Shown piece after piece: positions 25,083 through 36,464 of a DNA stretch of 64,000 nt. The position numbers and the translations under genes were made by a program. Position 1 is the first letter of the stretch. Each line of letters begins with the position of its first letter. Below the pieces are notes generated by a model. That model saw only the letters and a list, made by a program, of their open reading frames with translations. It did no database searches and was not told the origin of the DNA. Origin of the DNA: Acidobacteriota bacterium (lineage in GTDB: Bacteria; Acidobacteriota; Holophagae; Holophagales; Holophagaceae); contig JAJYRN010000001.1 of the NCBI GenBank assembly GCA_021794095.1, positions 124,001-188,000 of the forward strand, written 5' to 3'.

Positions 25083-25173
25083 GGAAGGTTGGCCGAGTGG
25101 TTTAAGGCTCTCGTCTTGAAAACGAGCGTGGGTGGCAAGCCCACCGGGGGTTCGAATCCCTCACCTTCCGCCA
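25083..25173 (+). tRNA. tRNA-Ser (anticodon TGA)
   Basis: A 91-nt type II tRNA. The acceptor stem is GGAAGGT/ACCTTCC, with G discriminator and encoded CCA. The anticodon stem-loop CTCGT-CTTGAAA-ACGAG has anticodon TGA, and the long variable arm (GTGGGTGGCAAGCCCACC region) is typical of serine tRNAs. It is divergent from tRNA-Ser(GCT), 74 bp away, so the two share a promoter region. It decodes UCN codons, mainly UCA. Confidence 0.96.
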
Positions 25174-25287
25174 ACACGCGCCCGAAAGCGGCGTGTTCTA
25201 CTGTGGGCTGGTTCCGCCCAAGGCGCCGGTGCGCCATGGCGGTGGCATTCCGGGCGACCCGGGCCCCGGTACACTGGAGCCTGTCCC

Positions 25288-28041
25288 ATGTCCGCCAGAG
25301 TGTCCGCCTCCTCCCTTTCCAGCCTCGGTCGCCGAGGCGTGTTGGCCATGGCCTTGGGATTCAGCCTGGCGGGGGCCCAGCCCCCGCCGAAGCGCTTCGA
25401 GGTGACGGTCCATCCGCCAGACATGCTGTTCCGCTTTGCGCCCTCGGTGGATATTCCAGGCCTACCGAAGGTGGCGCTGGTGTTGAGTGGTGGCGGGGCC
25501 CGGGGCATCGCCCACATCGGTGTCATCCAGCGATTGGAAGAGGTGGGCTATCCCATTGCCAATGTCACCGGCACCAGTGCGGGCGCCCTGGCCGGGGCCC
25601 TCTACGCTAGCGGCTTCTCGGGCCGGGAAATGGAGGAGATTTTCCGGCGGCTGGACCTGGGCCAGGCGGCTCTGAATCCACTCTTGCGCGCGCCGGGCTC
25701 CACCCTGGATGAGCAGGAGGCCCGCAACGACACGCTGATCACCGCGGAGTTCGACCACAGCGGCTACACCGTGGCGCAGAGCCTCCGCAGCAGCCGGGAA
25801 CTGCGGCACCTCCTCCAGGGCCTGCTGGCGCGGGCCACCTACTTCTCGAACGGGGACTTCGACCACCTGCGGCTCCCCCTCCGCGTGCTGGCCACGAATC
25901 TGGAAACAGGCGAGGGGCGTGTTTTCGGCAGCGGGGATCTCGCCCGGGCCGTGCAGGCGTCCATGACCATTCCCGGCGGCTTCCAGCCGGTGCTGATCGG
26001 CGGTCAGCAGTACGTGGACGGTGCCCTGGTGGAGAACCTGCCGGTGGACACCGCGCGCCAGGCCTTCCATCCGGACCTGGTGTTGGCCGTGGACGCGAGC
26101 GCGCCGCTCCCCCGACAACCTTCCAACAACTTCTTCTCGGTGGCCACCCGCAGCCTGGATCTGGTGGTGGAACGCCGGCAGCGCGAAAGCCGGGCTCACG
26201 CGGACCTGCTGGTACGGATGGACCAGCCGAACATCCCCTTCCTGGACTACAGCGGCCTCATCCCCAAGCTGGTGGAGGACGGCCGCGAGGCGTTCGACCA
26301 TCAGTCCAGCCAGCTCAACGAACGGCTGCTCAAGGCCCTCGGCCGCAGGCGGAACCTTGGCGTCCAACGGGTGGACATGGATTGTCCAGATGCCATTCCG
26401 CAGCCTCTGGAAGCCTTGCGCGACCAGCTGCTGAAATCGCCCCGGGAAATCCGCGAACAGGATGTCCTGATCTTTCTCCAGCAGGCGCTGGTGCATGGCC
26501 TCGCCTCCGAGGCTTGGGCCGAGGTGGTTCCGGAATCGCCGCCCGTCCTCAAGGTCCACCTCCGCCTCTTCCCGGCCATACGCGGGGAGCAGGTGGTGGC
26601 TCCCACCCCGTGGCGGGCCAGCATCCAGGCCGATCTCGCGAAGCGCCTGCCCCCCGGCACCCGGTTCAACCCGGAAGCCCTGGGACGGGTGCTCAGTAAG
26701 ACGATCTACCAGCTGGTCATGCAGGGAAACCCGCTCGTGGATGTGCGTGGCTCTGGCTTCGATCCATCCACGGGGCGGGTGCGCGTGGAGGTCCGTGAGC
26801 CGGTGGTGACCGATGTCCGGGTGCTTCCGGCCGATAGCCGCCCGGTGGATCCCACCCTGGTGCACCGGATGCTCGCCCCCCTGGAAGAGCGGCCGCTGAA
26901 GGCCGCGGCCCTCCAGGAGCGCCTGGACCTGGCCGAGCACCGGCTCCACCTGGCGGCCCTCCCCTGCACCGTCGTGCCGGAAGACGACTTCCGTGAGGTG
27001 CGGGTCCAGGTGAAGCCGCGTGCAGCCCTGCGGAACCGGGTGGACGCCTCGCTGGGCTACGAAACGAATCTCGGCTGGCAATTGGGCCTCAGCTACCTGG
27101 GACGGGACCTTTTCGGTGCCGGAACCGAGCTGGAACTCGACGGAGCCCGGAACCGCCTTCAGGAAATGGGTGAGATCTCCATACGACAGCCCTTGTCAAA
27201 AATGCCGGAAACAGTCCTGGAGGGCCGTTTCTCCGCCTGGAACCAGCGCCTGGAGGCATTCCAGACTCCCGCCACGGGTGACCTCCTGGCCGTCTATCCG
27301 GGCCTCCGGCTGTCAGTCACCGAGGCCAGCCTGGGCGGCTACGCGCGCTTCGGCGGCGCCCAGACCGGCAAGGCCCGGCTGGAAGTGTCCCAGCGGGAAG
27401 TCTCCTACCTCGGCCCAGGCCTCCAGGACACTCAGCAGGCTGCCTACCTGAACATCGGCTGGGACAACTTCGACCAGCACACCCTGCCCACCCGAGGCCT
27501 GCTCCTGCGGGGCCGGTTCGGCGCCGGCGAGGCCCTTCCGGATGCGGGAGCGCGCAACACCTTCACCCAGGCCTATCTGCGGGCGCGCGGACTCCAGCCG
27601 CTGGCGGGGCCCGTGGGACTGGATCTTGATCTGGAGGGCGCCCTGGGCCAGCACCTGCCCCTGGACCGCTGGTGGGCTGTCGGTGGGCCGGGGTTCATGC
27701 TGGGCAGCCTGCCGCTCAGCTACCTGACCCCGGATTTCGCGGCGGCGCGGATCGGCCTGCCCTTCCATTTCCCCACGGCGATGGGCCTCATCCTGGAGGT
27801 GGAACCACGGTTCGACCTGGCCCGGGTGGCTCCGAACAGCGCGGGCCTCTGGAGCAGCAGCGTCTATCGCCAGTCGCGCGGGGTGGGCTTTCTGGTGCGC
27901 ACGACCCTTGTGGGGCAGTACTACCTGGAGGCCTCCTATGGCTGGCGCAGCCGCAGCGGACCCAACGGCGCCCTGCCCTCCAACCGCCAGTTCACGGTGG
28001 CCTTCGGCACCCAGCCCTTCGACCTCTGGCGCCGGCGCTGA
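25288..28041 (+). CDS. Patatin-like phospholipase fused to POTRA and outer-membrane barrel
   Basis: A 917-residue protein with an N-terminal export signal (hydrophobic RRGVLAMALGFSLAGAQ). The patatin domain is at about 60-255: the oxyanion loop SGGGARGIAHIGV, nucleophile elbow GTSAG with Ser97, and the catalytic Asp in DGALVENLPV. Around 385-570 is a POTRA-like region. The C-terminal third has alternating beta-strands of an Omp85/BamA-like barrel (LGYETNLGWQLGLSYLG, LGGYARFGGAQTGK). This matches the PlpD/RssA-BamA type, sometimes called type Vd secretion, which delivers or displays a lipase at the cell surface. ATG 25288 was chosen for the signal peptide; the upstream frame runs through the tRNA. 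Confidence 0.9.
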   Translation: MSARVSASSLSSLGRRGVLAMALGFSLAGAQPPPKRFEVTVHPPDMLFRFAPSVDIPGLPKVALVLSGGGARGIAHIGVIQRLEEVGYPIANVTGTSAGALAGALYASGFSGREMEEIFRRLDLGQAALNPLLRAPGSTLDEQEARNDTLITAEFDHSGYTVAQSLRSSRELRHLLQGLLARATYFSNGDFDHLRLPLRVLATNLETGEGRVFGSGDLARAVQASMTIPGGFQPVLIGGQQYVDGALVENLPVDTARQAFHPDLVLAVDASAPLPRQPSNNFFSVATRSLDLVVERRQRESRAHADLLVRMDQPNIPFLDYSGLIPKLVEDGREAFDHQSSQLNERLLKALGRRRNLGVQRVDMDCPDAIPQPLEALRDQLLKSPREIREQDVLIFLQQALVHGLASEAWAEVVPESPPVLKVHLRLFPAIRGEQVVAPTPWRASIQADLAKRLPPGTRFNPEALGRVLSKTIYQLVMQGNPLVDVRGSGFDPSTGRVRVEVREPVVTDVRVLPADSRPVDPTLVHRMLAPLEERPLKAAALQERLDLAEHRLHLAALPCTVVPEDDFREVRVQVKPRAALRNRVDASLGYETNLGWQLGLSYLGRDLFGAGTELELDGARNRLQEMGEISIRQPLSKMPETVLEGRFSAWNQRLEAFQTPATGDLLAVYPGLRLSVTEASLGGYARFGGAQTGKARLEVSQREVSYLGPGLQDTQQAAYLNIGWDNFDQHTLPTRGLLLRGRFGAGEALPDAGARNTFTQAYLRARGLQPLAGPVGLDLDLEGALGQHLPLDRWWAVGGPGFMLGSLPLSYLTPDFAAARIGLPFHFPTAMGLILEVEPRFDLARVAPNSAGLWSSSVYRQSRGVGFLVRTTLVGQYYLEASYGWRSRSGPNGALPSNRQFTVAFGTQPFDLWRRR

Positions 28042-28072: not shown

Positions 28073-29227
28073 TCATCGCACCCACCCCAGCGCCCCGGCC
28101 GCGGCGCCCAGGACCAGGACGAAGGCGGGATGCCAGCGGAAGCGCAGCAACAGGAGCAGCGCCAGGAGGGCCACCAGGATCCCGGGGAAGCCATGGATGG
28201 CACCCCGGACCAGCAGCAGGGCCGCCCCGAGGATGAGGCCCACCACCACGGGCGAGAGGCCCGCCAGCAGATCCTGGGCTCGGCCCAGATCCTTCAGCCG
28301 GGTGTAGAAGTGGGAGAGCAGGCTCATGAGGACCAGGGCCGGGAGGAACAGCGCCAGGGTGGCCACCAGCGCGCCGGGAACGCCCTGGAGGCGGTAGCCC
28401 GCGAAGGTGGCCAGCACGGCGATGGGGCCCGGCGTGAGGTTGCTGATAGCCACGCCATCCAGGAACTGGCGGGCATCCAGCCAGTGGAGCCGCTCCACCA
28501 GGGTCTGATGGAGGATGGGCACCAGCACGAACCCGCCGCCAAAGAACACGAAGCCCACTTTGAGGAAGGTCCAGCCCAGGCCCAGGAGGGAGGGCGCGGC
28601 CAGGGCCGCAGGGGCGGCCGCAGGCAGGGCCAGGGCCGCGGCGACAGGGGGGCGCTCCGGCGGCGGCTTGGGGCCGGGTTCTCCGGCCAGACGCCCCTTC
28701 CCCAGCCAGAGGCCCAGGATGGCGCCCGCCACGAGGACGGCGAGGCTGTTCCATTTCAGGAGGGAGAGGCCCAGCGCCAGGGCCAGCAATAGGATCGCGG
28801 CGGGGGTGCGCACCGCCGTGCGACCCATGGACCAGGCGGCGCTCAGGATGAGGGCGATGACCACGGGCCCCAGCCCCAGCAGGGCCGGCTGGAGTCCGGG
28901 AACGGCGTGGAAGGTGAAATAGAGCCAGGAGAGCAGGATCACCAGAACCACCGATGGCGCCAGGAAAGCCGCCGCGCAGGCCAGCCCGCCGAGGAACCCG
29001 AACCGCCGGTACCCCACGAAGAGCGCCGCGTTCACCGCGAAAGGACCGAGAAGCTGCCCCAGGGCGACACCGTGAAGGAATTCGTCTTCGGGGATCACCC
29101 GGCGCCGGCGCACCAGGTCGTGCTCCATGAGAGCCACCACCGCCATGCCGCCCCCGAAGCCGAGGGCCCCCAGGCGGAGGAAGAGGGCCGTCAGATACAG
29201 CAGGGAGAGGGGGCGGTCCTGCTCCAT
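28073..29227 (-). CDS. chrA: Chromate transporter ChrA
   Basis: A 384-residue two-domain CHR protein. Each half has the CHR signature: FLRLGALGFGGGMAVVALME (residues about 16-35) and FLKVGFVFFGGGFVLVPIL (about 221-240). Each is followed by a GVALGQLLGPFA or GVAISNLTPGPIAV block and several membrane helices. ChrA expels chromate or takes up sulfate-like oxyanions. It starts 3 bp after the ferredoxin gene stop, at the end of the TolC-MFP-RND-ferredoxin operon, an unusual setting for ChrA. It is convergent with the patatin gene. Confidence 0.93.
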   Translation of the reverse strand: MEQDRPLSLLYLTALFLRLGALGFGGGMAVVALMEHDLVRRRRVIPEDEFLHGVALGQLLGPFAVNAALFVGYRRFGFLGGLACAAAFLAPSVVLVILLSWLYFTFHAVPGLQPALLGLGPVVIALILSAAWSMGRTAVRTPAAILLLALALGLSLLKWNSLAVLVAGAILGLWLGKGRLAGEPGPKPPPERPPVAAALALPAAAPAALAAPSLLGLGWTFLKVGFVFFGGGFVLVPILHQTLVERLHWLDARQFLDGVAISNLTPGPIAVLATFAGYRLQGVPGALVATLALFLPALVLMSLLSHFYTRLKDLGRAQDLLAGLSPVVVGLILGAALLLVRGAIHGFPGILVALLALLLLLRFRWHPAFVLVLGAAAGALGWVR

Positions 29228-29230
29228 GGG

Positions 29231-29866
29231 CTACAACTTCGTCTCGTTGACCAGGACGAAGCCGTTGCGGCGGGCGAGGTCGCGCAGCATGGGCAGGAAG
29301 GCCTGGATGTCTTCCTGGCCTGTGGAGGCCACTTCGAAGCGCATGAAGGCGGGTGCCTTCTCTGCGGAGCCCTTGACGGTGGGCACCTGGAGGTCCAGGT
29401 TCACGAGATCCACGGGGTGGTCCGCGATGAGGTCCTGGAGCTGGCGGAGAAAGGGCTTGTCGCCGAAGGAACCGGCGATCTCCATCCGCGTCCGGCAGGT
29501 GAGACGGCCCAGCGTCTCCTCCGCTGCCGCGCGGGCGCGGGCCGCCCCCTGCTTGCCCCGCTTGGTCCTGGCCTCCTCCTTCACGACCTGGAGGATCTTG
29601 TGCTCGCGCTCGACCCGGCGGACCAGATCCCGATCCGGAAAGCGGATGGCGTCCGTGGGGCAGACCATGGCGCAGGTCGAGCAGCCCACCATGCAGGCGT
29701 AGGGATGGGCCGCCACGGCCTTCCGGTCGGTCATCACATAGACGCCCCGGCCACAGGTGACATAGCACAGTTCGCAGCCGATGCAGGCCCGGGCGTCCAC
29801 GGCGGGCAACCAGGGAATCTCCTCACGGGGGATCCCATGCCAAGGGTCAAGGGTGGCGGATGCCAT
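29231..29866 (-). CDS. Ferredoxin with two 4Fe-4S clusters and C-terminal domain
   Basis: A 211-residue protein. Residues about 26-80 have CIGCELCYVTC and then CMVGCSTCAMVCP, two cluster-binding motifs. A charged helical linker (REHKILQVVKEEARTKRG) follows. The C-terminal 80 residues (CRTRMEIAGSFGDKP ... LARRNGFVLV) have a beta-alpha-beta layout resembling NIL/ACT-type small-molecule-binding domains. It is soluble, with no signal peptide. ATG 29866 has GGAGGTG before it. It lies between the RND pump (13 bp) and ChrA (3 bp), so it is tightly co-transcribed. A redox partner of the efflux or chromate response is plausible but inferred. Confidence 0.88.
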   Translation of the reverse strand: MASATLDPWHGIPREEIPWLPAVDARACIGCELCYVTCGRGVYVMTDRKAVAAHPYACMVGCSTCAMVCPTDAIRFPDRDLVRRVEREHKILQVVKEEARTKRGKQGAARARAAAEETLGRLTCRTRMEIAGSFGDKPFLRQLQDLIADHPVDLVNLDLQVPTVKGSAEKAPAFMRFEVASTGQEDIQAFLPMLRDLARRNGFVLVNETKL

Positions 29867-29879
29867 GGCGCACCTCCGG

Positions 29880-32800
29880 TCAGGCCTCACCGTGGGTGGA
29901 TTCCGGCTCTGGCCTGGGGTGGCGGAAGCGGGCGGCCAGACCGTCGAACAGCTCGTAGAACATGGGCACGTAGACCAGCGTCAACAGCGTGGACACCATC
30001 AGCCCGCCGATGGCCACCACGGCCAGTGGCGAGAGCCGTTCCAGGCCGATGGCCCATTCCAGGGCGATGGGCAGCATGCCCACGGCGGTGCCCACGGCGG
30101 TCATGAGGATGGGCCGTGTGCGGGTGCGGACGGACTCGACGAGGGCCGCTTCCAGACCCATCCCCTTGGCGCGGGCCTCCTCGATGAAGTCCAGCAGCAG
30201 AATGCTGTTCTTCACGACGATGCCCGCCAGCAGAATCATGCCCATGAAGCCCGGCATGCAGCTGTGCTTGCCCGCCAGCAGCATGGACCAGATGGCCCCG
30301 ATGATGCCCAGGGGGATGGCCACCATGATCGTGAGCGGGTGGATCCAGGACTTGAACGCCGGCACCAGGCTGAAGTAGAGCAGCACCAGACCCAGCACCA
30401 GAGCCGACATCAGCGACGTGAAGGCCTCGGTCATGGTCTTCATCTCGCCCTCCTCGGTGATCGTGTAGCCGGGCGGGAGCTTCAGCCCTTCGAGCGCCTT
30501 CTGGACATTGGCCTCGATGTGGGTGACGGCGCCGGTGGAGCGGTAGCCCAGCACATCCACCGTCTCCTGGAGGTTCTGGCGGGTGTGCAGGGTGGGCACC
30601 GCCGCCGGCTCGATGCGGCCCAGGGAGGAGAGGGGCACGGGGCCCCGGGGCGTCATCACCGGCAAGGTGGCCAGGTCGAGGTCGCTCGTGCGGCGGGCGC
30701 CTTCGGCCTGGACCCACACGGCGAAGGAATCCTGGCCGGGGATGCGGAACAGGGTGGCGGGCATGCCCTTCACCTGGCCGCTGATCTGGGTACTGACCTG
30801 GTCCGCCGTGATGCCGTAGATGGCCATGCGGTCCCGGTCCGGAAGGAACCGGTACTCGGTGCGATCCAGGGTCCAGGTGGGCACCACGGCCGTGAGGCCG
30901 CCCACCTTCCCGAGCCGCGTCTGCACCTGCTGCCGAATCCCATCCAGCACTTGGGGATCGGGCCCTGAAATCATCAGGTCCACCGTGGCGCGGATGGTGG
31001 AGAGGGGCGTGGCGCCGTAGTCGAAGGCGGCCGGGAAGCGCAGCCCAGGGATGCCTTGCATGTCCTTGAGCACCTTCCCCTCGATGTCCCAGAGCGTGGC
31101 CTTGCGGTGGAAGCGGTCCACCAGGTGGACGGTGATGAAGGCCTGCTGGGGGTTGCGGCCCGATCCGAAGGAGAGGATGCCCGGTTCGGAGCCCAGGGTG
31201 GACGAGGTCATCGTCACCTCCGGCAGCTTCCAGATGGCCTGCTCCACCCGCGTGAGCGTCGCCTCGGTCTGCGGCATGGAGGTGTTGGGGTAGGTCTCGA
31301 AGGTGACGCGGAAGATGCCCGTATCCATGGGTGGCATGAGGTCGCGGCCCACCAGGGGCATGACCACGCGCCCCGCCAGCATGAGCATCATCACGGCGGG
31401 CATGATGAACAGCGCCTTGTGCCGGAGCGCGAATTTCAGCGTGCGGACGAAGAACTCCTGGATGGGGTGAAGCACCTTGCCCATGACGAAGCCATCCAGC
31501 TTCAGCTCCCAGGCCCGGCGTTCCATGCGCCCGCCCAGCCGGAGGATGAAGGGCGCGAAGATCGGGATAATGGTGACGGACACCACGTACGAAGCCAGCA
31601 GCGCGATGGTGAGCGTGAGGCTGAGGGGCCGCAGCACCGTCTGCACGAAGCCGCCGATCCAGATGATGGGCACCAGCACCGCCACCGTAGCGTAGGTGCC
31701 GGAGAGGATGGCCAGCATCACCTCTTCGGTGCCGCCGATGGTGGCCTCCTCCAGCGGCTGACCCAGCGTGTGGTAGTGCCGTTCGATGTTCTCCAGCACC
31801 ACGATGGCGTCGTCCAGCAGCATGCCCACGCCGAGGATCACGCCTGTCAGCGTCACCATGTCGAACTGGAATCCGAAGATCCACATGAAGGCGAAGGTGA
31901 TGAGGTACGTGAAGGGGATCGAAATGCCCGCCAGCAGCATGCCCCGCACATCCGCCAGGAACAGGAAGATGATGATGACGGTCATGATGATGGCGTCGCG
32001 CAGCGCGTCCACCATGTTCGACACGCTGGCGTGGATCAGTTCGCCCTGGGTATCCGCGATGCTGAACGAGAGGCCCGGGTACTGCCGCTCCAGGCTCGGC
32101 AAGGCCTTCGTGACACTCTCGATGGTGGGCAGGGCGAAGCCCGAGTTGGACCGCTGGATGTTGAGGCCGATGGCGGGCTTCCCGTTGCCGTGGAAGGCCG
32201 AAAGGCGCTCCTGGACATCCATGCGGACCTTGGCCACATCCTTCAGGTACACCGGGGCGCCCGGCCCCTGGCTCACGACGACGTTCCCGACCTGTTCGGG
32301 CCGGATGAACTCGCCCTGGTTCTTGAGGAGGATCTGGCCTTCCTTGGAGATCACCAGGCCCTCAGGGGTGTTGCGGTTCCACGCGTTCAGCGCCAGGGCC
32401 ACCTGGCCCGCGCTCAGGTGATGGGCCTGGAGCGCGTTGGGATCCAGATCCACCCGCAGCACGCTCTGGTAGCCGCCGAAGACCTCCACGTTGGAGACAT
32501 CCGGCAGCCGGAGGAGCGCCTCCTTGATGGGGTTGTCCGCCAGGCGGCGCACCATGGCGAGATCCAGGTTGGAACCCGGCTTGGGTGTCACCGAGAGCGT
32601 GAGCACCGCGGGCGTGGCCGAGGACACCTTGAAGACCTGGAAGGGCCGGATGTCCGGCGGGAGCTGGGCGCGGATCGTGTTCAGGGCGTTGGAGACATCC
32701 GTGGCGGCCGAGTCCAGTCCCTTGCGGTAGTTGAATTCCGCCATCACCACCGACACCTCGTCGTTGGAGGTGGAGGTCACCCGGCGGGTCAGCTCGATGG

Positions 32801-33017
32801 TTTTCAGTTCCTTCTCGACGACGCGGCTGACATCGTTGGCGACATCGTCTGCCGATGCGCCGGGCCACACCGTGACCACGGCAATCTGGGGGCGCTCGCT
32901 GTCGGGGAAGAGGTTGACGGGCATCTTGAAGAAACCCACCAGCCCCACCACCGCGAGCAGGAAGACCAGCGACAGCAGCAGGTGCGGCCGCTTCATGTAA
33001 CCTCGGACGAAGTTCAT
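29880..33017 (-). CDS. RND efflux pump, inner-membrane subunit
   Basis: A 1045-residue RND transporter with the usual 12-helix/two large periplasmic loop layout. The N-terminus MNFVRGYMKRPHLLLSLVFLL is typical. TM4 has GMLLDDAIVVLEN with the paired Asp of drug-type (HAE) pumps, and a later helix has GIVVKNSILLLDF with the matching Lys, so the proton relay looks intact and more HAE-like than metal (HME) type. It overlaps the membrane fusion protein gene by 4 bp (ATGA) and is followed 13 bp later by a ferredoxin gene. The substrate is unknown. Confidence 0.95.
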   Translation of the reverse strand: MNFVRGYMKRPHLLLSLVFLLAVVGLVGFFKMPVNLFPDSERPQIAVVTVWPGASADDVANDVSRVVEKELKTIELTRRVTSTSNDEVSVVMAEFNYRKGLDSAATDVSNALNTIRAQLPPDIRPFQVFKVSSATPAVLTLSVTPKPGSNLDLAMVRRLADNPIKEALLRLPDVSNVEVFGGYQSVLRVDLDPNALQAHHLSAGQVALALNAWNRNTPEGLVISKEGQILLKNQGEFIRPEQVGNVVVSQGPGAPVYLKDVAKVRMDVQERLSAFHGNGKPAIGLNIQRSNSGFALPTIESVTKALPSLERQYPGLSFSIADTQGELIHASVSNMVDALRDAIIMTVIIIFLFLADVRGMLLAGISIPFTYLITFAFMWIFGFQFDMVTLTGVILGVGMLLDDAIVVLENIERHYHTLGQPLEEATIGGTEEVMLAILSGTYATVAVLVPIIWIGGFVQTVLRPLSLTLTIALLASYVVSVTIIPIFAPFILRLGGRMERRAWELKLDGFVMGKVLHPIQEFFVRTLKFALRHKALFIMPAVMMLMLAGRVVMPLVGRDLMPPMDTGIFRVTFETYPNTSMPQTEATLTRVEQAIWKLPEVTMTSSTLGSEPGILSFGSGRNPQQAFITVHLVDRFHRKATLWDIEGKVLKDMQGIPGLRFPAAFDYGATPLSTIRATVDLMISGPDPQVLDGIRQQVQTRLGKVGGLTAVVPTWTLDRTEYRFLPDRDRMAIYGITADQVSTQISGQVKGMPATLFRIPGQDSFAVWVQAEGARRTSDLDLATLPVMTPRGPVPLSSLGRIEPAAVPTLHTRQNLQETVDVLGYRSTGAVTHIEANVQKALEGLKLPPGYTITEEGEMKTMTEAFTSLMSALVLGLVLLYFSLVPAFKSWIHPLTIMVAIPLGIIGAIWSMLLAGKHSCMPGFMGMILLAGIVVKNSILLLDFIEEARAKGMGLEAALVESVRTRTRPILMTAVGTAVGMLPIALEWAIGLERLSPLAVVAIGGLMVSTLLTLVYVPMFYELFDGLAARFRHPRPEPESTHGEA

Positions 33018-34105
33018 CGCGCGCCTCCCAGGGGCTGGAGGCGCGTACCGGCGGTGAGGGCCATCAGTTCACTGGGAAGGCCCAGCACCACCTGGTCGCC
33101 GGCGGCGATGCCGGTCACCGCCGCCGTGGATTCGCCCCGGAGCAGCACCGTCACCGGCACGGGCACGGCTTTCCCATTCACCACTTTCACCACCAGCGTC
33201 TGTGTAAGACCTTCCAGCAGGGCCTGAGCGGGCACCACGACCCCCTGCACCGGCTTCGTGCGGTACTCGGCCTGCACCGTGGCTCCGGCGGGAAGGCCGA
33301 AGGGCGCGACCTTGAGGTCCGTCTCCACGGTGCCCAGGTGCGCCATATCCAGCGCCGGGTGGATGAGGCTGGTCTTGAGGGTGAGCGCCTGGTTGCCGGT
33401 GCGGAAAACCACCTCCTGGCCCGCGGTCAGGGTGGCCAGGCTGTCCTGGCTCAGCTTGCTGATGAGCTTCACGGGGCCGGGTACTTCCATGGCAAAGAGG
33501 GGCTTGCCGGGCGTGGCCAGATCGCCGGGGTTCACCAGCTTCTGGGTGATGATTCCGGTGTAGGGAGCGGGCACCGCCGCGTAGCCGCGCTGGATGCGTA
33601 CGGAGGCCAGGGCGCGCTCAGCGCCCACATCGCCGGCCTTCACCGCGGCGAGCCGCGCCTGGGAGATCTCGAAGGCCTGCTGGCTGATGGCCCCCGCCTT
33701 GAGCAGGATCCGGTCCCGGTTGTGGATGGCCTGCTGCTTGGCCAGTTCTTCGTGCGCCGCCGCGGCCCGCGCCTGGGCCGCCTGGAGCGCATCGTCCAGG
33801 GTGCGCGGATCAATGACGGCCAGGGTCTGGCCCCGGCGGACGCTATCACCTTCCTGCACCTTCACGTCGAGGATCGTGCCCGGAACCTGGGCCGCCACGG
33901 TGGCGGAGGTGGTGGCCTCCACCAGGGCCACGGTGCTGAGCGATCCGCCCGCCTGCCCTTCGCGCGCAAAGGCGGTGCGCACGGGGATGGCGGCCTCGTG
34001 GGGCGGCGGCATGCGCGCGATGGCATGCTTCCGGGCGGCGATGGCCGCGGCCATGCCCCCCAGGACCACCAGAGCGATGACGAGGGCGAGGCTGCGCTTA
34101 CTCAT
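33014..34105 (-). CDS. RND efflux periplasmic membrane fusion protein
   Basis: A 363-residue HlyD/AcrA-type adaptor. An N-terminal membrane anchor (SLALVIALVVLGGMAAAIA) is followed by the biotinyl-lipoyl half AAQVPGTILDVKVQEGDSVRRGQ, a helical hairpin (about 110-165), then YAAVPAPYTGIITQKLVNPGD and the beta-barrel/membrane-proximal domains. It bridges the RND pump and TolC. The start at 34105 follows GAAGGAG. It overlaps TolC's 3' end by 8 bp and RND's 5' end by 4 bp, so the three form one translationally coupled unit. Confidence 0.93.
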   Translation of the reverse strand: MSKRSLALVIALVVLGGMAAAIAARKHAIARMPPPHEAAIPVRTAFAREGQAGGSLSTVALVEATTSATVAAQVPGTILDVKVQEGDSVRRGQTLAVIDPRTLDDALQAAQARAAAAHEELAKQQAIHNRDRILLKAGAISQQAFEISQARLAAVKAGDVGAERALASVRIQRGYAAVPAPYTGIITQKLVNPGDLATPGKPLFAMEVPGPVKLISKLSQDSLATLTAGQEVVFRTGNQALTLKTSLIHPALDMAHLGTVETDLKVAPFGLPAGATVQAEYRTKPVQGVVVPAQALLEGLTQTLVVKVVNGKAVPVPVTVLLRGESTAAVTGIAAGDQVVLGLPSELMALTAGTRLQPLGGAR

Positions 34106-35402
34106 GGGAGGCTCCTTCCACGAAATCGAGATAGTCGAGGGCGCTCTGGAGGGCGTAGAGCCCCTGCCAGTAGCCGGTGAGGCCCTGCAGTTCCTGGGTC
34201 CGGCCCGCCAGGTAGTCCTCCATGCGGCCGGCGCCCTGTTCAAGCTTGAGGTGCTCGATGCGGGCCACCTCGGCGCCCAGGGCGCGCTGGGCCTTCCCTG
34301 CGGCGAACTGGGCCTCCGCGGCCTTCACGCGCTGCACGGCTTCCACCACCTGGCTGCGCACTTCCAGCGTCTTCCCCTGTTCGCGCTCCCGCGCCTCCAG
34401 CAGCTCCGCCTGGGCCGCATGGAGGTTCTGACTGCGCTGGCGCCCCGAGAAGAGCGTCCACTTCAGGTTCAGGCTCACCTCGTTGGTGTTGTAGGTCGGC
34501 AGGTTCGGGCCGTTGTTCTTGAGGGCCAGACCCGTGATCCCCACCTGGGGCAGGTAGGCTTCCAGGCCCAGGGCCTTCTTCCGCTCGAAGACCTGCGTGC
34601 CGGTCCGCGCGGCCTTCAGGTCCATGCGCTCCGCCAGGGCCTGCTCCGTGAGCGCGGCCACATCGAGGCCCGGCACCTCCGGCGCCTCGGGGATGTCCTG
34701 AAGGTCGTAGCCCTCGCGGGGCGGCGGATCCCCCATGAGGGCCGCCAGCATCGCCTGGGCGCCCGCCTCCTGGGCCGCCACACCCGCCCGCTGCGCCTTG
34801 GCCGATTCCAGGGCGAAGTGGATCTTCGCGCCGTCCACCGAGGCCCAGGCCCCCAGCTTCACCTTCAGGTCCGCATCGGCCGCATCCTTCGCCAGGGCGG
34901 CCACCAGGCTGTCGAGGGCCGCGTGGGCATGGTGGAGCGCCAGGGTCTGCCGGTAGGTGGCCCGCACGTTGTAGCGGATCTCCGCCTGGGTATGGAGCGC
35001 CAGCTCCGCCGCGGCGTCCCGGCTGAGGCGGGCCATGCGCTGGCCTTCCATGATCTGGCCGGAAGCCAGGATGGGCACGGTCCACGCGATGCCGTAGTGG
35101 AACTGGCTCGCGGCCCAGGGCAGCCCGTAGAAGCCCTTGGGCCCCAGGTAGTCCAGGGAGATGGGCGCGATGGGCCGCTCGGTGTTGTAGTGGTTGTAGG
35201 AACCCACCACGCTCAGCTCGCCGAAGTGCCGCCCCCCGGCGGCCTTGGCCCGGCTGGACGCGGCGGCCGCCTCCAGCTGCGCGGCCCGCAGGCGCGGATT
35301 GGCCGCCAGGGCCTTCTCCGTGGCCTGCTGGAGGGTCAGGGGCGTCCCCGCAGCGGCCAGGGTGCAGGCCAGCACGGGAAGCAGCAGGAAGACGTGTTTC
35401 AT
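34098..35402 (-). CDS. TolC-family outer-membrane efflux protein
   Basis: A 434-residue protein with a signal peptide (MKHVFLLLPVLACTLAAA), then LTLQQATEKALAANPRLRAAQLE, the first TolC helix, and a second matching repeat from about residue 215 (LTEQALAERMDLKAARTG). Long Ala/Glu-rich helices alternate with short strands (VSLNLKWTLFSG), as in OEP channel proteins. The ATG at 35402 is used because AGGAG lies at good spacing; a GTG 3 bp upstream is less likely. It heads the pump operon and is 129 bp downstream of the LexA/CRP hybrid regulator on the same strand. Confidence 0.93.
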   Translation of the reverse strand: MKHVFLLLPVLACTLAAAGTPLTLQQATEKALAANPRLRAAQLEAAAASSRAKAAGGRHFGELSVVGSYNHYNTERPIAPISLDYLGPKGFYGLPWAASQFHYGIAWTVPILASGQIMEGQRMARLSRDAAAELALHTQAEIRYNVRATYRQTLALHHAHAALDSLVAALAKDAADADLKVKLGAWASVDGAKIHFALESAKAQRAGVAAQEAGAQAMLAALMGDPPPREGYDLQDIPEAPEVPGLDVAALTEQALAERMDLKAARTGTQVFERKKALGLEAYLPQVGITGLALKNNGPNLPTYNTNEVSLNLKWTLFSGRQRSQNLHAAQAELLEAREREQGKTLEVRSQVVEAVQRVKAAEAQFAAGKAQRALGAEVARIEHLKLEQGAGRMEDYLAGRTQELQGLTGYWQGLYALQSALDYLDFVEGASHE

Positions 35403-35486: not shown

Positions 35487-35531
35487 CTTGCACAGGTTCG
35501 GCGCGATGACCCTCTCCCTCGTTGCTCCCGA

Positions 35532-36464
35532 TCAACTTCCCAACGATTCCCGTCCCGAGGCCAGCCGTCTCAGGGCCTCCAGGTGGAGCACCTGGAACCG
35601 GCGCGGCCCGAGCCGGTGCAGCACCCCCCGCCGGACGAGGGCCGCCAGCGCCCGCGAGAAGGAGGCCGGAGTCAGGCCGATGTCCTCGGCGAAGGCCCGG
35701 GCGCTGCCTGGAATGGCGACGATGGGATAGGGGCCGCCCGGCACCAGGGGCTCCAGGGCCGCCGCCACGCGGGTCAACGCACTGCGGATGGAGAGCTGCT
35801 CGATGGTGTCGAAGGCCTTGCGCAGTTGGCGGGCCAGGAGCGCGAGAAGGGCCACCGACATCCCCGGCTCCTCCAGGGCGGCCTGGAGATCCCGCCGGTG
35901 AATCAGCCTCACCCGCGTAGCTGCCAGGGCCTCCACCGAGGCCGGCAGGCTGCCGCCATCGAAGAAGGGCGCGAAACCCAGCACATCCCCGGGCCCGAAG
36001 CGCAGCAGGGTGGCGGTGCGGCCATCCTCGAAGGTCCGAAAGGCCCGCAACAGGCCATGTTCCACCTGCACCAGCCGGTCCGCCGGATCGCCCTCCCGCC
36101 AGAGGGAGCTGCCCTTGGGCAGCATCACCCCCCGGGCATGGGCCTCCAGGAGCTGCATGACCGCCTGGGGGCCCGCCAGACCGAGGGGGGATGGCAGCGC
36201 CGGAACGGGGGCTTTCCGGGGCACCTCCACCCGGAGCCGCCCGGACTCGGTGAGGCGGATGGCCCGGGCCCGGCCGGGCTCCACCTGCACGAGGCCCAGG
36301 GCCTGGAGCCGGCCCAGGTACTCGCGCACCGCCGCCGCCGAGCGCCAGCCCAGCGCCAAGGCCAGCTCCCGCAGTGTGGGGGGCAGCCGACCGGCGGGCC
36401 AGATGGACAGCGCCTGGAGCACCCGGCGTTCGGCCGCCGTGAGGGGGGCATCCGGAACAACCAT
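35532..36464 (-). CDS. Hybrid regulator: LexA-type winged helix + CRP/FNR core
   Basis: A 310-residue protein. Residues about 8-73 match a LexA-type winged helix: LTAAERRVLQALS, then LPPTLRELALALGW, SAAAVREYLGRLQALGLV and a GRARAIRLT wing. Residues about 105-195 form a cNMP-type beta-roll, with PGDVLGFAPFFDGGSLPASVEAL. CRP's Gly-Glu and Arg-Ser cyclic-nucleotide contacts are absent there, so cAMP binding is doubtful. A long helix follows (ALLARQLRKAFDTIEQL), then a CRP-type HTH at 255-280 (ARAFAEDIGLTPASFSRALAA). It therefore has two DNA-binding domains. A palindrome covers its start codon. It is upstream of and co-oriented with the TolC-MFP-RND-ferredoxin-ChrA operon, which it may control. 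Confidence 0.87.
   Translation of the reverse strand: MVVPDAPLTAAERRVLQALSIWPAGRLPPTLRELALALGWRSAAAVREYLGRLQALGLVQVEPGRARAIRLTESGRLRVEVPRKAPVPALPSPLGLAGPQAVMQLLEAHARGVMLPKGSSLWREGDPADRLVQVEHGLLRAFRTFEDGRTATLLRFGPGDVLGFAPFFDGGSLPASVEALAATRVRLIHRRDLQAALEEPGMSVALLALLARQLRKAFDTIEQLSIRSALTRVAAALEPLVPGGPYPIVAIPGSARAFAEDIGLTPASFSRALAALVRRGVLHRLGPRRFQVLHLEALRRLASGRESLGS

What the first reader, a model, noticed from the sequence alone, without database searches (positions are those of the whole stretch)
28073..35402. One operon joining a TolC-MFP-RND pump to a ferredoxin and the chromate transporter ChrA
Seen: overlaps of 8 and 4 bp and gaps of 13 and 3 bp tie five genes together. Known: RND pumps are proton-driven and ChrA moves chromate; neither normally needs a ferredoxin. 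Inference: a redox-linked oxyanion or toxic-metal response, with the ferredoxin reducing chromate or sensing redox state, in an organism likely to respire metals.
Basis: partly seen in the sequence, partly recalled or inferred. Interest (0 to 1): 0.66.

Follow-up and report, generated by a model that had tools for sequence, protein, structure and literature searches.

The report
Ferredoxin inside a metalloid-efflux operon
A bacterial pump operon carries an iron-sulfur protein from an unnamed family that, in many distant bacteria, sits beside arsenic-resistance genes, and its supposed chromate transporter groups with a cyanobacterial protein linked to arsenite, so the operon more likely handles arsenic-like toxins than chromate.

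Summary
The five-gene operon is real: TolC, MFP, RND, ferredoxin and ChrA on the minus strand, with the stated overlaps and gaps. The chromate reading is not supported.

The ferredoxin belongs to an unnamed 2[4Fe-4S] family with the N-terminal motif WHGIPREEI. It occurs alone, with a C-terminal domain (as here), or fused to an FAD/NAD(P)H reductase. ACR3 arsenite-exporter genes lie within 10 kb of 17 of 31 family places found by phylum scans, against 0.17 expected. An arsenic-type gene lies within 6 kb of 37 of 56 places, and in 0 of 18 control stretches. A same-genus copy of the operon has a probable arsC at its head. The window's ChrA groups with SuoT, a Synechocystis CHR protein reported to act in arsenite transport, with 100/100 support.

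RND-ferredoxin linkage recurs in Thermovibrio and, with an unrelated RND and the fused form, on a Sulfuricella plasmid.

My reading: a redox-assisted metalloid-resistance operon in which the ferredoxin supplies electrons for a cytoplasmic reduction and the pump and CHR protein move the product. Against it: no arsenic gene lies in the window, and 19 of 56 places lack them. Substrate and electron path are inferred.

The parts
34098..35402 (-). TolC-family outer-membrane factor, first gene of the operon
   Evidence: OEP, 112.8 bits; ATG with GAGGAG before it
33014..34105 (-). RND periplasmic adaptor (MFP)
   Evidence: TIGR01730 153.6 bits over cut-off 94.9; 8-bp overlap with tolC
29880..33017 (-). 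RND permease, HAE/HME subclass not assigned
   Evidence: ACR_tran 678 bits; no NCBIfam RND subclass over its cut-off; Asp-Asp (LLDDA, 400) and Lys (VVKNS, 934) motifs present, proton-relay role recalled
29231..29866 (-). 2[4Fe-4S] ferredoxin of the WHGIPREEI family with a C-terminal beta-alpha-beta-beta-alpha-beta domain (about residues 121-211)
28073..29227 (-). CHR-family transporter (annotated ChrA), SuoT-type
   Evidence: TIGR00937 243.8 bits over 171.7; clade with SuoT 100/100
35532..36464 (-). Regulator: LexA-type DNA-binding domain + cNMP-binding domain + Crp-type helix-turn-helix, 310 aa from the ATG at 36464
   Evidence: conserved upstream of the operon in L031, L034/L137, L136, L175
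36461..36476 (.). Perfect palindrome CCATACAAAAGTATGG over the regulator's start codon, candidate operator
   Evidence: only exact match in the window; kept with 0-1 change per locus in five further loci, spacer aside
35522..35535 (-). FNR/FixK-box-like site TTGATCGGGAGCAA over the regulator's stop codon, about 125 bp before tolC
   Evidence: only exact match in the window; TTGATC...CAA kept in five further loci; likeness to the FNR box recalled

Best explanation
This is a metalloid-resistance operon, most likely for arsenic or chemically similar species, with its own redox module. Proposed path: electrons from a cellular low-potential or NAD(P)H pool pass through the two 4Fe-4S clusters of the ferredoxin to reduce, in the cytoplasm, an oxidised toxicant (arsenate, a methylated or thiolated arsenical, or a similar oxyanion) or the disulfide of its reductase. 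The proton-driven TolC-MFP-RND pump and the SuoT-type CHR permease then move the product. The Crp/FNR-like regulator upstream, which has a second, LexA-like DNA-binding domain, controls the operon, probably through the palindrome at its own start and the FNR-box-like site before tolC. Shown: gene order, protein families, conserved sites, statistical linkage of the ferredoxin family to arsenic genes, and grouping of this ChrA with SuoT. Inferred: substrate, electron donor and acceptor, direction of CHR transport, regulator binding.
For: ACR3 within 10 kb of 17 of 31 scan-only places (0.17 expected) and 20 of 51 in all (0.33 expected); any ars-type gene within 6 kb of 37 of 56 places against 0 of 18 controls; three architectures, one fused to FAD/NAD-binding reductase domains, point to electron delivery; RND-ferredoxin pairs in the genus (5 of 5), Thermovibrio (RND 49%) and, with an unrelated RND (25%), a Sulfuricella plasmid; probable arsC at the head of the orthologous operon in G043, with an ArsE-family thioredoxin, a thioredoxin and a DsbD-like gene beside it; window ChrA in the SuoT clade, 100/100, SuoT reported to act in arsenite transport (PMC4307280 and PMC5061849, passages); conserved regulator sites.
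Against: No ACR3, ArsP, ArsR, ArsA, ArsD or ArsC homologue was found in the 64-kb window with these queries (the ArsC queries were not run on the window), and none within 6 kb in L031 to L034. 19 of 56 places lack ars genes, among them all five non-Thermovibrio Aquificota places. The own genome already has ACR3 elsewhere. The G043 ArsC scores 97.7 bits, below the curated 174.3. SuoT is said to import arsenite (PMC5061849 passages), an odd partner for an exporter. The two RND-ferredoxin cases outside Acidobacteriota lie by sulfur-type genes.
Confidence: 0.5

Rival explanations
1. Reactive-sulfur or sulfide handling: the ferredoxin serves a sulfur redox step, and the pump and CHR protein move sulfur species or thio-metalloids; the arsenic links are secondary.
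For: SuoT lies beside a sulfide:quinone oxidoreductase-type gene and an ArsR. In Thermovibrio an ArsR, a rhodanese-like and a TauE/SafE-like gene (read by eye) run divergent from the ferredoxin. On the Sulfuricella plasmid YeeE/YedE-type genes follow.
Against: ACR3, ArsD and ArsA, which are arsenic-specific families by curated model, dominate the family's neighbourhoods.
Confidence: 0.15
2. Chromate resistance: ChrA exports chromate and the ferredoxin reduces it, with the pump as a side defence.
For: The protein is over the cut-off for the chromate efflux family (TIGR00937, 243.8 over 171.7). ChrA lies within 10 kb of the ferredoxin at 6 of 51 places, 0.25 expected.
Against: It groups with SuoT and not with the plasmid chromate-operon ChrA (only one such protein was tested, and it sits on a long branch); no ChrB beside it; ChrA is missing from 3 of the 5 sister pump-ferredoxin loci.
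Confidence: 0.1
3. Divalent-metal (Zn, Cd, Co) efflux, with the ferredoxin sensing or buffering Fe-S damage rather than reducing a toxicant.
For: CDF genes next to the ferredoxin in L032, L035 and L060 and near it in L115 and L135; SufC/SufD-like genes at L054, L060, L121, L126.
Against: The RND is not over the CusA/CzcA cut-off (365.9 against 701); the fused flavin reductase suggests electron flow, not sensing; arsenic genes are far commoner.
Confidence: 0.12
4. The ferredoxin is an ordinary carrier that happens to lie in the operon; the pump is a general multidrug pump.
For: Patchy distribution: the close form is in 4 of 93 class genomes. Some Aquificota members sit beside NADH-dehydrogenase or ABC-transporter genes. 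The tree shows no clustering of RND linkage beyond shuffles.
Against: Tight coupling (13-bp gap here, 8-bp overlap on the Sulfuricella plasmid), 5 of 5 conservation after this RND, and recurrence with two unrelated RND subfamilies.
Confidence: 0.08

Closest known systems
ars operons with ACR3, ArsR, ArsD/ArsA, ArsC and ArsP-type permeases
   Same: The ferredoxin's relatives lie inside or beside such operons in many phyla; a probable arsC heads the sister operon in G043.
   Different: The window operon has no ACR3, ArsR or ArsC; its transporters are an RND pump and a CHR protein.
Synechocystis pSYSM suoS-suoR / suoC-suoT cluster
   Same: Window ChrA and SuoT share one 100/100 clade and about 49% identity.
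   Different: No sulfide:quinone oxidoreductase, ArsR or DUF302 gene in the window operon; the suo cluster has no ferredoxin or RND.
Plasmid chromate operons (chrB-chrA-chrC type)
   Same: Same CHR superfamily.
   Different: Separate branch; no chrB or chrC.
HgcB, the mercury-methylation ferredoxin
   Same: 2[4Fe-4S] ferredoxin; hgcAB also occurs beside arsenic genes (PMC7438021, passages).
   Different: 34.7 bits against a cut-off of 99; no hgcA among the operon genes.
Tripartite RND multidrug and heavy-metal pumps (AcrB, CusA types)
   Same: TolC-MFP-RND gene set with Asp-Asp and Lys motifs.
   Different: Over no NCBIfam subclass cut-off; a ferredoxin and a CHR gene are in the operon.
Ferredoxin genes near arsC in Fusibacter sp. 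3D3 (PMC9751042)
   Same: Authors report a ferredoxin and a redox-active disulfide protein by arsC-1, and a 4Fe-4S protein 'Pno' by acr3-arsC-2 (passages).
   Different: Whether those belong to this family was not tested; no RND or ChrA is mentioned in the passages seen.

Membership tests
CHR (chromate efflux) family | Score over the curated TIGR00937 cut-off | tested here: met
   243.8 against 171.7 bits
Chromate-operon ChrA (chrB-chrA type) | Groups with a ChrA from a chrB-chrA-chrC operon | tested here: not met
   P. aeruginosa plasmid ChrA lies outside the SuoT clade; one such protein tested, on a long branch
Chromate-operon ChrA (chrB-chrA type) | ChrB beside ChrA | tested here: not met
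   Neighbours are a ferredoxin and a patatin gene
SuoT-type CHR protein | Same supported clade as SuoT | tested here: met
   100/100; only plasmid matches at E 1e-20 are the Synechocystis gene
SuoT-type CHR protein | Moves arsenite | not testable with these tools
   Needs transport assays
WHGIPREEI ferredoxin family (named here) | N-terminal motif plus eight cluster cysteines | tested here: met
HgcB | Score over the curated cut-off | tested here: not met
   34.7 against 99 bits
Heavy-metal (CusA/CzcA) RND | Score over the curated TIGR00914 cut-off | tested here: not met
   365.9 against 701.45 bits
HAE-type RND (TIGR00915) | Score over the curated cut-off | tested here: not met
   423.7 against 940.35 bits
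ars operon | ACR3 or ArsB exporter in the operon | tested here: not met
   No ACR3 match in the window by tblastn; ACR3 is on contig C20; ArsB itself was not searched for
ars operon | arsC in the operon | tested here: inconclusive
   No ArsC among the window operon's genes; a probable arsC heads the sister operon in G043, 97.7 against 174.3 bits
LOR/SDH (Saccharop_dh_N) domain in the ferredoxin C-terminus | PF04455 over its gathering score, or a clearly best structural match | tested here: inconclusive
   No match for the window's domain; one of ten homologues at E 0.0023, 18.8 against 23.5 bits; 3mgj Z 9.5, other rows 9.2; profile against PDB, best match 3mgj, E 0.31

The most novel reading that the evidence does not exclude
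The WHGIPREEI ferredoxins are a hitherto unnamed, widespread component of arsenic (metalloid) resistance: an electron-delivery protein, sometimes fused to its own NAD(P)H-flavin reductase, that reduces a cytoplasmic arsenical or its reductase. In Holophagae it works in one operon with a tripartite RND exporter and a SuoT-type arsenite-linked CHR permease, making a redox-coupled trans-envelope metalloid pump under FNR-like control.
Probability: 0.3. Interest if true: 0.75.

Novelty: new variant of a known kind. Interest (0 to 1): 0.55.

Why it matters
If right, a ferredoxin family present in at least 11 phyla, for which no curated Pfam or NCBIfam model covered the whole protein over its cut-off, gains a testable role in arsenic detoxification. 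A group of proteins annotated as chromate exporters would need a new label. And tripartite RND pumps would join the candidate routes of metalloid export. All three are testable by gene deletion in a cultured relative.

Tried and rejected
Rejected: the chromate-specific reading (ChrA phylogeny); HgcB membership; the heavy-metal RND class; a promoter in the 13-bp gap between rnd and the ferredoxin gene. The idea that the pump replaces ACR3 is not supported: G000, G032, G038 and G043 all carry ACR3 elsewhere, and ACR3 is common in the class (71 of 93) whether or not this ferredoxin is present.

Led nowhere or weak: Pfam on the C-terminal domain. The pMOL28 stretch fetched as a chromate yardstick did not contain chrA. 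Paper searches for ArsE and for the Sao system gave little. The ferredoxin tree has few columns and many unresolved forks; the RND-linked rows do not form one clade and the label is not clustered beyond shuffles.

Rows dropped and limits: one search used the 33 ACR3 matches over the cut-off and left out the 8 weaker ones; its ChrA list left out 2 stop-broken pieces of G362 and kept 3 that are under the cut-off; the partial ferredoxin end G367:C275:5-121 was left out. Chance is copies x 21 kb / genome size. One search dropped L005, L137, L053 and the window as duplicates or self. Its tblastn queries came from the family's own loci (ten of them checked later by curated models), so one search is partly circular; (ACR3 by TIGR00832) is not. 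The ACR3-like matches in L042, L055, L056, L058 and L114 rest on queries of the type that scores 83 bits against the ACR3 cut-off of 282.8. Of 20 control stretches asked for, 18 existed, and several were shorter than asked.

Print: searches listed no paper whose title or shown abstract start describes this ferredoxin family or an RND-ferredoxin-ChrA operon; most hits were seen only as listings. Four papers were read in passages only (PMC9751042, PMC7438021, PMC5061849, PMC4307280).
Full report
OBSERVATION. The operon is as described: minus strand, TolC 35402-34098, MFP 34105-33014, RND 33017-29880, ferredoxin 29866-29231, ChrA 29227-28073, with overlaps of 8 and 4 bp and gaps of 13 and 3 bp. 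Families are confirmed by Pfam and NCBIfam. Four of the five start codons are preceded by a purine-rich ribosome-binding site (clearest GGAGGT, for the ferredoxin); that of ChrA is weak. A regulator with a LexA-type DNA-binding domain, a cNMP-binding domain and a Crp-type helix-turn-helix lies upstream on the same strand.

THE FERREDOXIN IS A FAMILY OF ITS OWN. The first 80 residues hold eight invariant cysteines preceded by WHGIPREEI. The 14 full-length or nearly full-length sequences aligned (window plus 13 loci from Acidobacteriota, cyanobacteria, Chloroflexota, Myxococcota, WOR-3/Hydrothermota, Calditrichota and Caldisericota) share W9, H10, G11, P13, R14 and E16. Three architectures exist: short (about 100-130 aa), with a C-terminal domain of about 90 aa (the window's), and fused to FAD- and NAD-binding domains. 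No NCBIfam model is met; the top match is HgcB at 34.7 bits against 99. The C-terminal domain is predicted as beta-alpha-beta-beta-alpha-beta (mean pLDDT of the whole protein 81.6). Its closest solved structure is 3mgj, a Saccharop_dh_N (LOR/SDH) domain, Z 9.5, but other rows reach 9.2, so this is a lead only. By the labels in the tree, with the Sulfuricella plasmid counted as Pseudomonadota, members occur in 11 phyla.

ARSENIC NEIGHBOURHOODS. Scans with an 18-row profile (A2) found the family in 21 of 297 Acidobacteriota genomes, 5 of 251 of the phylum of G363 (the genome of an Anaerolineae locus) and 6 of 121 of the phylum of G364 (that of the Thermovibrio locus). ACR3 (TIGR00832, over cut-off) lies within 10 kb of 17 of 31 places found only by these scans, with 0.17 expected, and of 20 of 51 places in all, with 0.33 expected. 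By tblastn, 37 of 56 places have an ArsR, ACR3-like, ArsP-type, ArsA, ArsD or ArsC gene within 6 kb (25 of 56 for ACR3-like, ArsA, ArsD or ArsC); none of 18 control stretches has any. Query identities were checked: ACR3 413.9 bits over 282.8, ArsD 105.4 over 90, ArsE-family thioredoxin 89 over 62, ArsR/SmtB 88.9 over 55; ArsP_1 240.7 over 32.3, ArsA_ATPase 484.2 over 24.3. NCBIfam's two arsenical-pump ATPase models stay under their own cut-offs for that ArsA.

RESULTS AGAINST. Nineteen of 56 places have none of these genes within 6 kb: the window's close relatives L031 to L034 and L136 (whose arsC lies just beyond 6 kb), L037, L038, L054, L057, L059, L060, L113, L117, L118, and five Aquificota places L130 to L134 (two beside NADH-dehydrogenase genes, two beside an ABC-transporter system, read by eye). 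The 64-kb window has no match to the ACR3, ArsP, ArsR, ArsA or ArsD queries. G000 has ACR3 on another contig.

LOCAL TIE. In same-genus G043 (L136) the orthologous operon (RND 88%, regulator 67%) reads arsC - regulator - tolC - mfp - rnd - ferredoxin on one strand. An ArsE-family thioredoxin, a thioredoxin and a DsbD-like gene run convergent to it. The ArsC there has 97.7 bits, below the curated 174.3, so its identity is probable, not certain; the CVANSARS loop is seen directly. In G031 the regulator is followed by FmdE-like and CDF-like matches and then tolC-mfp-rnd (91% RND, cut by the contig end). More distant RNDs of the same subfamily (44-45%) in other class members lie by ArsR-like and FmdE-like genes (L170, L172, L173). 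In G084 two such RNDs lie on the same strand as a family ferredoxin and an ArsR, the nearer about 8 kb away.

RND LINKAGE BEYOND THE GENUS. Thermovibrio L050 reads ferredoxin-tolC-mfp-rnd, RND 49% identical. The Sulfuricella denitrificans plasmid NC_022358 reads SufD-like, CDF, tolC, mfp, rnd, then a ferredoxin-FAD fusion overlapping rnd by 8 bp, then YeeE/YedE-type genes; its RND is only about 25% identical to the window's. So two distant RND subfamilies are paired with this ferredoxin. The tree does not show the RND-linked rows as one clade, and their clustering is no stronger than in shuffles.

THE CHRA. At E 1e-20 the only matches among 72,556 plasmid records are four Synechocystis records holding one gene, chrA of pSYSM. 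Its neighbours (ArsR, FAD-dependent oxidoreductase, DUF302) and the account in PMC4307280 (passages) identify it as suoT. At E 1e-3 there are 382 records, the four Synechocystis ones first. In a 27-row tree the window, L032, L033, L187, L190, L196, the cyanobacterial ferredoxin-linked ChrA (L035) and SuoT form one clade with 100/100 support; the P. aeruginosa plasmid ChrA from a chromate operon lies outside on a long branch. PMC4307280 says that SuoT operates in arsenite transport; PMC5061849 says that Synechocystis imports arsenite through it (passages). The primary paper was not read. The ChrA proteins beside the Calditrichia and Bacteroidales fusions belong to another CHR branch, so the ChrA-ferredoxin pairing involves two branches. 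ChrA lies within 10 kb of 6 of 51 places (0.25 expected).

REGULATION. The palindrome CCATACAAAAGTATGG overlaps the regulator's start codon, and TTGATCGGGAGCAA lies over its stop codon about 125 bp before tolC. Each has one exact site in the window, and both recur, with small changes, in five further loci: L031, L034/L137 (one place), L136, L175 and L032. The second resembles the FNR/FixK box (recalled). That two sites pair with two DNA-binding domains is inference.

MECHANISM. The neighbours point to metalloids, the clusters and the fused reductase to electron delivery, the RND and CHR proteins to transport. I therefore propose reduction of an oxidised metalloid species, or of its reductase, followed by export. 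Acceptor, donor and CHR direction are unknown. Rivals, in order: reactive sulfur, divalent metals, chromate, chance.

NOVELTY. Ferredoxin genes near arsC have been mentioned for Fusibacter (PMC9751042, passages), and hgcAB near arsenic genes (PMC7438021, passages). The ten paper searches listed no title or abstract start that describes this family or this operon. I file it as a new variant of a known kind: a metal(loid)-resistance operon with an unusual redox part.

Noticed in passing
window 35532-36464 (-): Chimeric regulator with two DNA-binding domains: LexA-type at the N-terminus, then cNMP-binding and Crp-type helix-turn-helix. No SOS or cAMP link is evident.
   Followed up: partly
window 25132-28041 (+): A patatin-like phospholipase gene runs convergent to the operon's end; a similar gene lies convergent to the ferredoxin or ChrA end in three separate loci of G032 (L031, L032, L033), as if the block had been copied as a unit.
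   Followed up: no
L032 7980-8558; L035 12132-12755; L170, L172, L173, L175: FmdE-like zinc-ribbon-type genes recur beside the ferredoxin, the RND pump or ArsR in Acidobacteriota and a cyanobacterium. Role in metalloid handling unknown.
   Followed up: partly
L054 1180-2873; L060 1-1252; L121; L126: SufC- and SufD/SufB-like Fe-S assembly genes lie near the ferredoxin family in several phyla, perhaps for Fe-S repair under metal stress.
   Followed up: no
L131 3948-4313; L132 7565-7945: Short family ferredoxins divergent from NADH-dehydrogenase-type genes in the phylum of Thermovibrio, a hint to an NADH-linked donor.
   Followed up: no
L036 4771-5547; L044 6102-6882: The same pair of small uncharacterised genes follows the ferredoxin in two Chloroflexota loci.
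   Followed up: no
G032:C61, C65, C236: One genome carries three divergent copies of the ferredoxin block with different transporters (RND, CDF + ChrA, RND + ChrA).
   Followed up: partly
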